DNA from: Prochlorococcus sp. MIT 0604
GTDB taxonomy: Bacteria; Cyanobacteriota; Cyanobacteriia; PCC-6307; Cyanobiaceae
DNA: 64,000 bases
Direction: 5' to 3'
Assembly (NCBI RefSeq): GCF_000757845.1
Contig: NZ_CP007753.1
Location: 682,001 to 746,000, forward strand
In this document: in pieces, positions 5,751-41,091 of the stretch
Layout: every line of letters starts with the position of its first letter
How positions within the stretch are numbered: the first letter of the stretch is position 1
The notes under the pieces: generated by a model
Told to the model about the DNA's origin: nothing
Databases searched by the model: none
The model's input: the letters and a program-made list of their open reading frames with translations, nothing else
Program-made: the position numbers and the translations under genes

Positions 5751-6221
5751 AAGATTTATTCTGAAAATTAGTTAAAAGACAGTTGAGATCATAGTGATCC
5801 CAAAAAAAAAATGTGGATAGTTTTTTCTTAAAATAAGATAATATTTTATTTTGCACATAGAAATTCAAATTTAATCAACATATTGTGGAAAACCCTGTTG
5901 AAAAACGCTTAAAAAGTGGATAACTCTTCGGGAGCATTATCAAAACAAGCTTTTTTGGGAAAATTTTAAGTATTAATACTTCATCAAAAAAAAATTAATT
6001 GTAGATTAAAAAGTATCATAATCTCTTGTTATAACTGTGGGATCACTACTTTTTAAAAAAAGATAAAAAATCTATTCCAAGACCACATGTTGATAAAGAA
6101 TTTTAAAAAAAATTTTTCATGATGTATCAATTTGAAAATTAAAGTGAAGAAAAATCAATCTAAACTTGAAATTTTTAATTTTTGTCTTAGGAGGTAAAAA
6201 ATATTTAATTCGGTTTTCTCT
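5751..6221. other. Gene-free interval with DnaA-box-like sequences
   Basis: About 470 bases of very AT-rich DNA between genes pointing away from it on both sides. It contains several 9-mers close to the DnaA box: TGTGGATAG (5812-5820), TTTTGCACA (5849-5857), TGTGGAAAA (5884-5892), TGTTGAAAA (5896-5904), AGTGGATAA (5915-5923) and TGTTGATAA (6088-6096). TGTGGAAAA is the complement of TTTTCCACA, the box reported for freshwater Synechococcus. No dnaN or dnaA gene is nearby. Confidence 0.4.
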
Positions 6222-38644: not shown

Positions 38645-39556
38645 ATGAATGTAAGTATTGTTATACCGACTTACAATAGATTACCTATATTAGAGAAATG
38701 TCTCTTTGCGCTTGAAAATCAAAAATTAAATACAAATATCAGTAATTATGAAGTAATAGTAGTTGATGATGGATCCACTGATGGGACAACTTCATGGATA
38801 AATAAAAACAAAGCTAATCTCCCACACGTTAATCTATTTCAGCAAGAACATGGAGGACCTGCACTTGGAAGAAATCTGGGAGTAATTAAATCAAAATATG
38901 AAATTATTATATTCATTGATAGTGATCTTATTGTTTTAGACAATTTTATAAATTGCCACGTAGAAAAATTACTTTCTTCTTGGAGAAAAAATGATAAAAA
39001 ATGTTTTACCTATGGCTCGGTAGTCAATACATCTAATTTTCTAAATCCTCAGAGTGAAAAACATAAAATAATGGACACTTCTTTTGCTTACTTTGCTACT
39101 GGGAATGTTGCGATATCAAAAGAATTGATTTTAAGTGTGGGATTATTCGATACTTCTTTTAGTCTTTACGGTTGGGAGGATTTAGAACTTGGAGAAAGAT
39201 TAAAAAAAATTGGGACAAAATTAATTAAATGTCCAAATGCAGTAGGTTTTCATTGGCATCCGCCATTTAATTGCGAACAAATAGATTCATTAATAGCTCA
39301 AGAAAAAGAGAGAGCAAAAATGGCGTTGGTGTTTTATAAGAAACATCCAAATTTAAGGGTTAGATTTATGATTCAATTAACTCCTCTTCATAATTTACTT
39401 TGGCAAATTCTTTGCTTGGGAGGACTAATCAGTGTTGATAGAATCCTTCCTTTATTAAGATTCCTGGTAAATATAAGAAGAAATAGACTTGCACTTGAGA
39501 TCCTCAGGATCCCTCTAAATATGATTTACATTAAACAGTTAACCAAATCAAGATAA
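38645..39556 (+). CDS. Family 2 glycosyltransferase
   Basis: 303 residues. GT-A fold: VSIVIPTYNRLPILEKCL, VDDGSTDGT, GGPALGRNLG and the metal-binding FIDSD. The acceptor-side GWEDLELGERLK fits the ED motif of GT2 enzymes. There are hydrophobic residues but no clear membrane helix. Substrate unknown; it could modify cell-surface sugars. Single gene upstream of rpsB. Confidence 0.85.
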   Translation: MNVSIVIPTYNRLPILEKCLFALENQKLNTNISNYEVIVVDDGSTDGTTSWINKNKANLPHVNLFQQEHGGPALGRNLGVIKSKYEIIIFIDSDLIVLDNFINCHVEKLLSSWRKNDKKCFTYGSVVNTSNFLNPQSEKHKIMDTSFAYFATGNVAISKELILSVGLFDTSFSLYGWEDLELGERLKKIGTKLIKCPNAVGFHWHPPFNCEQIDSLIAQEKERAKMALVFYKKHPNLRVRFMIQLTPLHNLLWQILCLGGLISVDRILPLLRFLVNIRRNRLALEILRIPLNMIYIKQLTKSR

Positions 39557-39584
39557 AAAACTTTTAGAAATACACATCACTTGC

Positions 39585-39590
39585 TAGAAT
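39585..39590 (+). promoter_or_regulatory. Putative -10 element for rpsB
   Basis: TAGAAT matches the -10 consensus and lies about 100 bases before the rpsB ATG, giving a leader of about 90 bases that contains the whole pseudoknot. A -35 is weak. Position alone supports it. Confidence 0.4.
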
Positions 39591-39609
39591 CGTTGAAATC
39601 AAATCCACA

Positions 39610-39673
39610 CATCTGACAGTTTCGGGTGATTTATTAATATAAATTCCCCGTCAGATGGAGGCTAACCCGAAAC
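39610..39673 (+). promoter_or_regulatory. rpsB leader with two interleaved stems (H-type pseudoknot)
   Basis: CATCTGAC (39610-39617) pairs with GTCAGATG (39650-39657), 8 bp perfect. GTTTCGGGT (39619-39627) pairs with ACCCGAAAC (39665-39673), 9 bp perfect. The order 1-2-1'-2' is a pseudoknot. A GGAGG (39657-39661) lies at the join between stems, 24 bases before the start codon, and a short T run (39677-39681) follows the second stem. It looks like a ribosomal-protein autoregulatory leader, with S2 the obvious ligand. Confidence 0.7.
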
Positions 39674-39685
39674 CCCTTTTTAATT

Positions 39686-40390
39686 ATGGCTGTTGTATCA
39701 CTATCAGAAATGATGGAAGCTGGTGCTCATTTTGGGCATCAAACTAGACGTTGGAACCCCAAGATGTCTAAGTATATATATTGCGCGAGAAATGGAGTTC
39801 ATATTATTGATCTTGTAAAAACAGCATTGTGTATGAACAATGCTTATAAATGGACGAGAAACGCAGCAAAAAGTGGTAAACGTTTCCTATTTGTCGGTAC
39901 AAAAAAACAAGCATCAGATGTTGTAGCTCAGGAAGCTACACGCTGTGGAGCCGCATATGTAAATCAAAGGTGGCTTGGAGGGATGTTGACTAATTGGACA
40001 ACAATGAAAGCTAGGATTGAAAGATTAAAGGATCTAGAAAGAATGGAAAGTAGTGGTTCAATAGCAATGAGGCCTAAAAAAGAAGCTGCAGTATTAAGGA
40101 GAGAACTTGAAAGATTACAAAAATACTTAGGTGGACTTAAGGGTATGAGAAGATTACCAGATGTAGTTGTATTGGTTGATCAGAGAAGAGAATCTAATGC
40201 AGTATTAGAAGCTAGAAAATTAGATATCTCATTAGTATCGATGTTGGATACAAATTGCGATCCGGATTTGTGTGAAGTTCCAATTCCTTGTAATGATGAT
40301 GCTGTTAGATCTGTGCAACTTATTTTAGGAAGACTTGCTGATGCCATAAATGAGGGTAGAAAGGGCTCTAGTTCCGAAAGAAAAAATTAA
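39686..40390 (+). CDS. rpsB: 30S ribosomal protein S2
   Basis: 234 residues. [39 protein letters not shown] and [15 protein letters not shown] are S2 signatures. It binds the small-subunit body-head junction. rpsB-tsf is the usual bacterial order, and the gap to tsf is 44 bases. Expression is likely controlled through the pseudoknot leader. Confidence 0.97.
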
Positions 40391-40434: not shown

Positions 40435-41091
40435 ATGGGAAACATTACAGCAAAACTTGTAAAAGATCTTAGAGACAAGACTGGCGCAGGAATGATGGAC
40501 TGCAAAAAAGCACTTAATGAAACTGATGGAAATGTTGATAAAGCTTTGGAATGGTTAAGAAAGAAAGGCATAGCTAGTGCTGAAAAGAAATCGGGAAGAG
40601 TAGCGGCAGAAGGGGCAATTGGTAGTTATATTCATACTGGATCAAGGGTAGGCGTTTTACTAGAGTTAAATTGTGAAACTGATTTCGTTGCTAGAGGTGA
40701 TATCTTCCAATCTCTGTTGAAGGATGTCTCAATGCAAATAGCCGCCTGCCCAAATGTTGAATATGTATCAATTAATGAAATACCGAAAGATGTTGTAGAA
40801 AAAGAAAAGCAGATTGAAATGGGTAGGGAAGATTTGTCAGGAAAACCGGAACAAATTAAAGAAAAAATAGTTGAAGGGAGAATAGCAAAAAGACTTAATG
40901 AGCTAATTTTGCTTTCACAACCCTATATTAAAGATAGTTCTCTAACAGTTGAGGATCTTGTTAAACAAGCAGCTGCAAAAATTGGGGAAAATATCCAAGT
41001 AAGACGCTTTACCAGATATACATTGGGTGAAGGTATTGAAAAAAATCAGATGGACTTCGCTGAAGAGGTTGCATCAATGCAAACAAACTAG
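40435..41091 (+). CDS. tsf: Translation elongation factor Ts
   Basis: 218 residues. [20 protein letters not shown] (UBA-like N-terminal domain) and [15 protein letters not shown] are EF-Ts signatures. It exchanges GDP for GTP on EF-Tu. The length fits the short cyanobacterial form. The stop is 5 bases from the next start. Confidence 0.97.

What the first reader, a model, noticed from the sequence alone, without database searches (positions are those of the whole stretch)
39610..39673. Perfect interleaved stems forming a pseudoknot in the rpsB leader
CATCTGAC (39610-39617) with GTCAGATG (39650-39657) and GTTTCGGGT (39619-39627) with ACCCGAAAC (39665-39673) are 8 and 9 bp perfect and interleave in 1-2-1'-2' order. 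In AT-rich DNA this is very unlikely by chance. A GGAGG (39657-39661) sits at the stem junction, 24 bases from the ATG, so folding may place or hide the ribosome site. E. coli rpsB-tsf is autoregulated by S2 through a structured leader, so this may be the cyanobacterial counterpart. I do not know of it being described here.
Basis: partly seen in the sequence, partly recalled or inferred. Interest (0 to 1): 0.75.

Follow-up and report, generated by a model that had tools for sequence, protein, structure and literature searches.

The report
Ribosomal protein S2 leader RNA pseudoknot
The start of the mRNA for ribosomal protein S2 in this marine cyanobacterium folds into a knotted RNA shared by the other cyanobacteria examined; it is of an already described kind and probably lets the cell sense surplus S2 and stop making more.

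Summary
They are a real, conserved RNA: P1 and the pseudoknot (pk) occur in 242 of 242 distinct rpsB leaders read from the same class of cyanobacteria. P1 covaries strongly; the pk core is nearly invariant, with compensatory changes in 3 of 7 pairs outside the window's own family and none inside it. A model built only from cyanobacteria hits one place in 50 kb of E. coli, the rpsB leader. So the "cyanobacterial S2 leader" reading is well supported. The kind is not new: Meyer et al. 2009 (PMC2704228) described this rpsB motif, pseudoknot included, and listed Cyanobacteria. Both Rfam models miss this copy at their cut-offs. What I did not find described is the form in the window's family (picocyanobacteria): no SD (0 of 175 distinct leaders against 67 of 67 outside) and a pk of at least 9 bp (173 of 175 against 6 of 67). 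Repression by S2 is inferred, not shown.

The parts
39582..39590 (+). Extended -10 promoter element TG-C-TAGAAT; predicted transcription start near 39597
   Evidence: TGnTAnnnT lies within 45 nt upstream of P1 in 130/130 genus, 43/45 family and 45/52 other cyanobacterial leaders, mostly 27-33 nt upstream, against 3-5% of shuffles (P1 placed, which misplaced it in at least L154, L168 and L206, three of the nine misses); the promoter scan also lists it. The start site itself is inferred.
39606..39609 (+). Conserved single-stranded CRCA just 5' of P1
   Evidence: C3, C5 and A6 of A4 are invariant or at least 90% conserved; CACA also precedes P1 in the E. coli leader.
39610..39617 (+). P1, 5' strand
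   Evidence: Pairs with 39650-39657; 8/8 pairs show changes on both sides in 48 leaders outside the family, 4/8 in 48 inside it.
39619..39627 (+). Pseudoknot helix, 5' strand GTTTCGGGT
   Evidence: Pairs with 39665-39673; all 432 cells (9 pairs in 48 family leaders) form standard pairs, none with a change on both sides; 94.6% paired with 3/7 pairs compensatory in 48 leaders outside the family.
39628..39645 (+). P3 hairpin inside the pseudoknot loop (39628-39634 with 39639-39645)
   Evidence: Fold of the window; the equivalent hairpin is 83.8% paired in A2.
39647..39649 (+). CCC that could pair with GGG 39624-39626 and so compete with the pseudoknot (hypothesis)
   Evidence: Predicted (probability over 0.5) in 113/113 genus, 52/57 other family and 37/57 other cyanobacterial leaders with loops up to 80 nt; shuffled-loop controls are also high.
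39650..39657 (+). P1, 3' strand
   Evidence: As for the 5' strand.
39657..39661 (+). GGAGG: conserved S2-leader element, not the Shine-Dalgarno
   Evidence: Also in E. coli GUGGAGGC; varies in some lineages, and a separate SD exists downstream in other cyanobacteria.
39665..39673 (+). Pseudoknot helix, 3' strand ACCCGAAAC, ending 12 nt before the ATG
39686..40390 (+). rpsB, ribosomal protein S2 (234 aa)
   Evidence: ORF; Pfam Ribosomal_S2, E 3.6e-91.
40435..41091 (+). tsf, elongation factor Ts, downstream gene of the operon
   Evidence: ORF; Pfam EF_TS, E 9.4e-35; co-transcription inferred from order and 44-nt spacing.

Best explanation
[quoted passage not shown] The transcript starts about 13 nt before P1 (predicted). 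P1 folds, and the loop strand GUUUCGGGU then pairs with ACCCGAAAC just upstream of the start codon to close a pseudoknot around a small hairpin P3 (structure shown by comparison). Surplus S2, perhaps with S1, binds the closed knot through the conserved blocks CRCA, GGGUG, UGGAGG and AACCC (inferred from E. coli and from sharing of the blocks). The closed knot ends 12 nt from the AUG, so it would keep the 30S subunit off and lower both S2 and EF-Ts (inferred).
For: P1 and pk in 242 of 242 distinct leaders (113 of the genus, 62 of other genera of the family, 67 of other genomes of the class; the scan presets the cores GGGT and AC(C/T)C, so see the sequence-free control). Covariation score and paired percentage exceed all 500 shuffles and all slid versions in both alignments. 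Compensatory pk forms: TACGGGT/ACCCGTA in 6 leaders and TGGGT/ACCCA in 2; E. coli has GGGGT/ACCCC (sequence). Single match in the own genome, before rpsB. Model R1 finds the E. coli rpsB leader as its only hit in 50 kb (25.8 bits, E 9.2e-6). t44 matches here at E 0.0015 in a 501-base scan. E. coli S2 autorepression is established (passages of review PMC10931766). The ACCC core ends 12-24 nt from the ATG in the three groups.
Against: I saw no binding or reporter data for any cyanobacterium. Neither Rfam model passes its cut-off here, and in whole-genome scans neither reports the leader at all. In E. coli the RBS is reported to lie outside the operator, so a steric block near the AUG may not be the shared mechanism. 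Inside the family the pk shows no change on both sides, so its support there is conservation; part of it may reflect sequence recognition rather than pairing. Shuffle counts on related sequences overstate significance (warning in the tool's description).
Confidence: 0.82

Rival explanations
1. The knot is mainly a translation-promoting element: a structured, S1-binding standby site that recruits 30S to a message without a Shine-Dalgarno, rather than a repressor site.
For: Leaders of the window's family lack an SD (0 of 175); S1 binds pseudoknots with high affinity (passage of PMC10931766); Prochlorococcus is said probably not to rely on SD and possibly to use S1 (passage of PMC5607370); the spacer after the knot holds TTTT in 99 of 113 Prochlorococcus-genus leaders.
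Against: The same knot is kept in leaders that have an SD (67 of 67) and in E. coli, where S2 represses; TTTT is in only 2 of 62 leaders of the other genera of the family.
Confidence: 0.2
2. Transcription attenuation: the 9-bp helix followed by CCCUUUUU acts as a terminator in Prochlorococcus.
For: T-tract right after the helix at 39677-39681; TTTT between pk and ATG in 99 of 113 genus leaders.
Against: TTTT in only 2 of 62 leaders of the other genera of the family, which have the same helix; the only terminator-like site the scan calls is at 39610-39628, not here; the loop would be 37 nt.
Confidence: 0.05
3. GGAGG at 39657-39661 is the Shine-Dalgarno and the fold hides it.
For: It matches the anti-SD core (recalled).
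Against: 24 nt from the ATG; changed in several lineages (TGGTGG, TGCAGG, GGTTG); an SD-like site lies after the pk in 67 of 67 leaders outside the family; in this window only 1 of 37 ORFs of at least 150 aa has an SD-like site at -16..-4 against 2 of 37 in a control stretch.
Confidence: 0.04

Closest known systems
rpsB motif of Meyer et al. 2009 (PMC2704228; probably Rfam RF01815 'rpsB', link recalled)
   Same: Upstream of rpsB; long P1; P3; P2 absent or short in Cyanobacteria; J2-3 pairs with the 3' extension after P1 as a pseudoknot; Cyanobacteria listed (section on the motif read in full; passages).
   Different: The paper predicts a 5-bp pk; here it is mostly 7-8 bp outside the family (45 of 67) and 9 bp inside it (170 of 175). 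RF01815 does not report this copy and gives 23-31 bits to 4 of 20 relatives scanned (cut-off 40).
E. coli rpsB leader, S2 operator (locus tff / Rfam RF00127 t44)
   Same: Blocks CACA, GGGUG, GUGGAGGC, NAACCC in the same order around P1 and pk.
   Different: E. coli has a larger loop region with a P2-like stem and an SD-like AGAGG 11 nt after the pk (read); the copy here is below the t44 cut-off (26.8 of 44 bits).
Other ribosomal leaders with pseudoknots (S15/rpsO, S4/alpha operon)
   Same: Pseudoknot at or near the start of the message used for autogenous repression (passages of PMC10931766).
   Different: Different protein, sequence and topology; no homology claimed or tested.
Ribosomal leaders listed for picocyanobacteria by Axmann et al. 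2005 (PMC1242208)
   Same: Conserved structured leaders of ribosomal operons, autogenous control proposed (passages and part of Table 1).
   Different: What I saw names S10-type, rplJ, L11 and rrn leaders, not rpsB.

Membership tests
rpsB motif / S2 leader (Meyer et al. 2009) | Lies upstream of rpsB (or tsf) | tested here: met
   39610-39673, rpsB ATG at 39686; single match in the genome at E up to 10.
rpsB motif / S2 leader (Meyer et al. 2009) | P1 stem closing a loop with P3 | tested here: met
   P1 94.5% and P3 83.8% of cells paired in A2; P1 96.4% in A3.
rpsB motif / S2 leader (Meyer et al. 2009) | Junction strand pairs with the 3' extension of P1 (pseudoknot) | tested here: met
rpsB motif / S2 leader (Meyer et al. 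2009) | P2 absent or very short in Cyanobacteria | tested here: met
   0-4 nt between P1 and the pk strand in most leaders listed; 1 nt here.
rpsB motif / S2 leader (Meyer et al. 2009) | Binding by S2 and repression of rpsB | not testable with these tools
   Needs experiment.
Rfam RF00127 t44 | Score at or above the gathering cut-off (44 bits) | tested here: not met
   26.8 bits, E 0.0015 in a 501-base scan; not reported in a whole-genome scan at E up to 10.
Rfam RF01815 rpsB | Score at or above the gathering cut-off (40 bits) | tested here: not met
   No hit at the leader in the own genome at E up to 10; 4 of 20 relatives scanned give 23-31 bits.
E. coli S2 leader (homology) | Detection by a model built from cyanobacteria alone | tested here: met
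   R1 (61 cyanobacterial rows) hits only the rpsB leader in 50 kb of E. coli, 25.8 bits; a search of the whole E. coli genome was not possible.

The most novel reading that the evidence does not exclude
Picocyanobacteria turned the ancestral S2 leader into a Shine-Dalgarno-free two-state switch. The SD after the knot was lost in their lineage, and the pseudoknot helix grew to 9 bp so that the knot itself lies in the 30S landing zone. The GGG of the knot can alternatively pair with a CCC at the 3' side of P3 (GGG 39624-39626 / CCC 39647-39649). The two states come out nearly equal in energy (-19.7 against roughly -20.1 kcal/mol, the latter with pseudoknot penalties recalled from the literature), which would let S2 tip the balance.
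Probability: 0.3. Interest if true: 0.55.

Novelty: new member of a known kind. Interest (0 to 1): 0.36.

Why it matters
It supports the view that S2 control of rpsB-tsf is shared by Proteobacteria and Cyanobacteria, and it gives a covariance model that finds the element where Rfam's two models do not. Prochlorococcus has few regulatory proteins (abstract of PMC2518516, seen in the listing) and seems mostly to lack SD sites, so this leader is a clean test of how translational repression works without an SD: the same RNA exists with an SD (other cyanobacteria) and without (the window's family).

Tried and rejected
GGAGG as the Shine-Dalgarno: rejected on distance, variation and the separate SD of relatives.

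Chance: the window-wide count of 8+9 bp knots does not exclude it alone; comparative tests do.

Transcription attenuator: the T-tract is largely confined to the genus (99 of 113 leaders; 2 of 62 in other genera of the family) and no terminator is called there.

First joint alignment A1 (124 rows): the pk 3' strand was out of register by one column between the family (mostly a 7-nt linker) and the others (mostly an 8-nt linker), so pairs were counted on two separate alignments. A2 holds 48 of the 53 rows from outside the family (5 with long P3 left out). A3 holds 48 of the 71 family rows of A1 (13 genus rows and 10 rows of other genera left out as near-duplicates or for long P3). The model alignment A4 holds 61 of the 73 sequences listed, which had itself left out long-P3 and misread leaders.

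In A3 two of the five shuffle measures are not clearly exceeded (pairs with a change on both sides 48/500, pair types 77/500).

Alternative P3 extension (GGG/CCC): predicted in 113/113, 52/57 and 37/57 leaders (loops over 80 nt dropped: 5 family, 10 other). Shuffled loops reach mean pairing of 0.66, 0.74 and 0.61 against 0.985, 0.873 and 0.607 real, so outside the family there is no excess at all; in the five leaders of genus g5 it is low (0.21-0.23); and the register shifts between Prochlorococcus and other genera. It is kept only as a hypothesis.

Sister groups of the class: 2 of 7 leaders give weak matches, 5 none; no claim is made for them. L241 gives a weak model hit (16.2 bits).

R1 misses 45 of 290 genomes of the class. 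Of the 20 misses listed, 18 were re-read and all 18 pass the scan; G185 carries the element with a long P3 (L168, 37.8 bits); G260 shows no rpsB match. The other 25 misses were not listed and not examined.

Dropped before the counts: L051 (no start codon found) and L056 (too little upstream sequence); 16 family loci (L179-L194); duplicates of the 100 nt before the ATG (130 to 113 genus, 71 to 67 outside the family). The SD pattern was GGAG, AGGA, GAGG or AAGG, not counted if it reached into the last 3 nt before the ATG: L266 has AAGG there. In one search one SD spacing of 29 nt comes, as far as I can tell, from a misplaced core in L221, whose own SD lies downstream of its pk.

Papers that gave nothing on this point: PMC2518516 (none of the terms found) and PMC7247131 (one passage; rpsB only as part of an L13 leader of Bacteroidia).

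Full report
What is there. The window lies in a 1.78-Mb single-contig genome. Of the 80 named relatives found by its S2 protein, 78 are titled Prochlorococcus and 2 Synechococcaceae, so I take it for Prochlorococcus (inferred). Between a glycosyltransferase gene (38645-39556) and rpsB (39686-40390; both by Pfam) lies a 129-nt gap. It holds an extended -10 box TG-C-TAGAAT (39582-39590), then CCACA, P1 (39610-39617 / 39650-39657), a pseudoknot helix (39619-39627 / 39665-39673), a hairpin P3 in between, GGAGG (39657-39661) and a C- then U-rich spacer to the ATG. tsf follows at 40435.

Chance. Within the window alone an 8-then-9 bp interleaved pair is not rare enough to convince: 2 loci on the + strand, shuffle mean 1.28. 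Against leaders of relatives, a finder that knows only the topology (two stems of at least 7 bp) fires in 57 of 70 leaders sampled from the family and 39 of 67 other cyanobacterial leaders, against 1 of 210 and 0 of 201 shuffled ones.

Conservation. After removing duplicates and unusable ones, 113 leaders of the genus, 62 of other genera of the family and 67 of other genomes of the class remain. All 242 have P1 (5 bp or more) and the pk (4 bp or more) in the same order. That scan presets the cores GGGT and AC(C/T)C, so the sequence-free finder above is the control. In 48 leaders outside the family (A2) all 8 P1 pairs and 3 of 7 pk pairs show changes on both sides; paired cells are 94.5% and 94.6%; for the whole structure (P1, pk, P3) 0 of 500 shuffles reach the paired percentage, the number of compensated pairs or the covariation score. 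In 48 leaders of the family (A3) P1 has 4 compensated pairs and 96.4% of cells paired; the pk is paired in all 432 cells but shows no change on both sides; the counts of compensated pairs and of pair types there are not clearly beyond shuffles (48 and 77 of 500). So inside the family the pk rests on conservation, and its covariation comes from outside: TACGGGT/ACCCGTA in 6 leaders, TGGGT/ACCCA in 2, and GGGGT/ACCCC in E. coli.

Promoter. TGnTAnnnT sits within 45 nt upstream of P1, mostly 27-33 nt away, in 218 of 227 leaders (130/130, 43/45, 45/52) against 3-5% of shuffles. The transcript therefore very likely contains both 5' strands, but no mapped start was available.

Relation to E. coli. 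A covariance model (R1, 61 cyanobacterial rows) finds one place in the own genome, 245 of 290 genomes of the class and, in 50 kb of E. coli MG1655 around rpsB, only the rpsB leader (25.8 bits, E 9.2e-6), overlapping the annotated tff/T44 locus. In the other direction Rfam t44 scores this leader at 26.8 bits (cut-off 44) in a short scan and does not report it in a whole-genome scan; RF01815 does not report it. Shared blocks are CACA, GGGUG, GUGGAGG (AUGGAGG here) and AACCC.

The ribosome site. Between the pk and the ATG an SD-like site is present in 67 of 67 leaders outside the family and in 0 of 113 and 0 of 62 inside it; the pk is at least 9 bp in 6 of 67, 112 of 113 and 61 of 62 respectively. 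In some other cyanobacteria the pk strand abuts or overlaps the SD (for example ACCCGTAGGAG). In this window only 1 of 37 long ORFs has an SD-like site at the usual distance, against 2 of 37 in a control stretch; a paper on Prochlorococcus says that such organisms likely do not rely on SD (passage of PMC5607370). So SD loss at rpsB looks like part of a general trend, and it coincides with the longer pk; cause and effect are not shown.

Mechanism. E. coli S2 represses rpsB-tsf translation through this leader, with help from S1; the review says that the RBS is not in the operator and that the details are unclear (passages of PMC10931766). I infer the same control here. Because the ACCC core ends 12-24 nt from the ATG in every group, a closed, S2-bound knot could block 30S directly. 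A further idea, that the knot competes with an extended P3, rests on predicted folds only and its controls are weak.

What is known. Meyer et al. 2009 (section on the rpsB motif read in full) describe P1, P2, P3 and the pseudoknot, say that Cyanobacteria have it and that P2 is absent or short there. Axmann et al. 2005 (passages) list other ribosomal leaders in picocyanobacteria, not rpsB in what I saw. Searches with rpsB, pseudoknot, leader, t44, the Rfam numbers, Prochlorococcus, autogenous control or Shine-Dalgarno listed no paper that by title or abstract start describes the picocyanobacterial form; they cover only the open-licence library, some lists were capped, and most papers were seen only as listings.

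Verdict. It is a well-supported member of a described kind, with a lineage-specific form worth an experiment.

Noticed in passing
window 5775-6039 (+): Match to Rfam RF02365 Yfr17 (cyanobacterial functional RNA 17), 96.5 bits, the only gathering-level Rfam hit in the window.
   Followed up: no
window 39677-39681 and equivalent positions in genus leaders: A TTTT tract lies between pk and ATG in 99 of 113 distinct genus leaders but in 2 of 62 leaders of other genera of the family.
   Followed up: partly
L270, L272, L273, L274, L276 (genus g5 of the family): Divergent family leaders: linker GAGGTTGA or GAGGTTCA instead of GAGGCNA, and a P3 in which the alternative GGG/CCC pairing is weak (0.21-0.23).
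   Followed up: partly
L289, L290, L292, L293, L296, L297 (family f18) and L291, L294, L295 (genus g60): Leaders in which GGAGG is replaced by other letters (such as GGTTT, GGTTG) and the pk 3' strand runs into the SD (ACCCGTAGGAG, ACCCATAGGAG), with compensatory pk changes.
   Followed up: partly
L246, L247 (sister group of the class): rpsB leaders in which the scan finds no such knot but which share the block GACAGTTTA(A/G)CCCGTAGTACAATAAG upstream of the SD.
   Followed up: no
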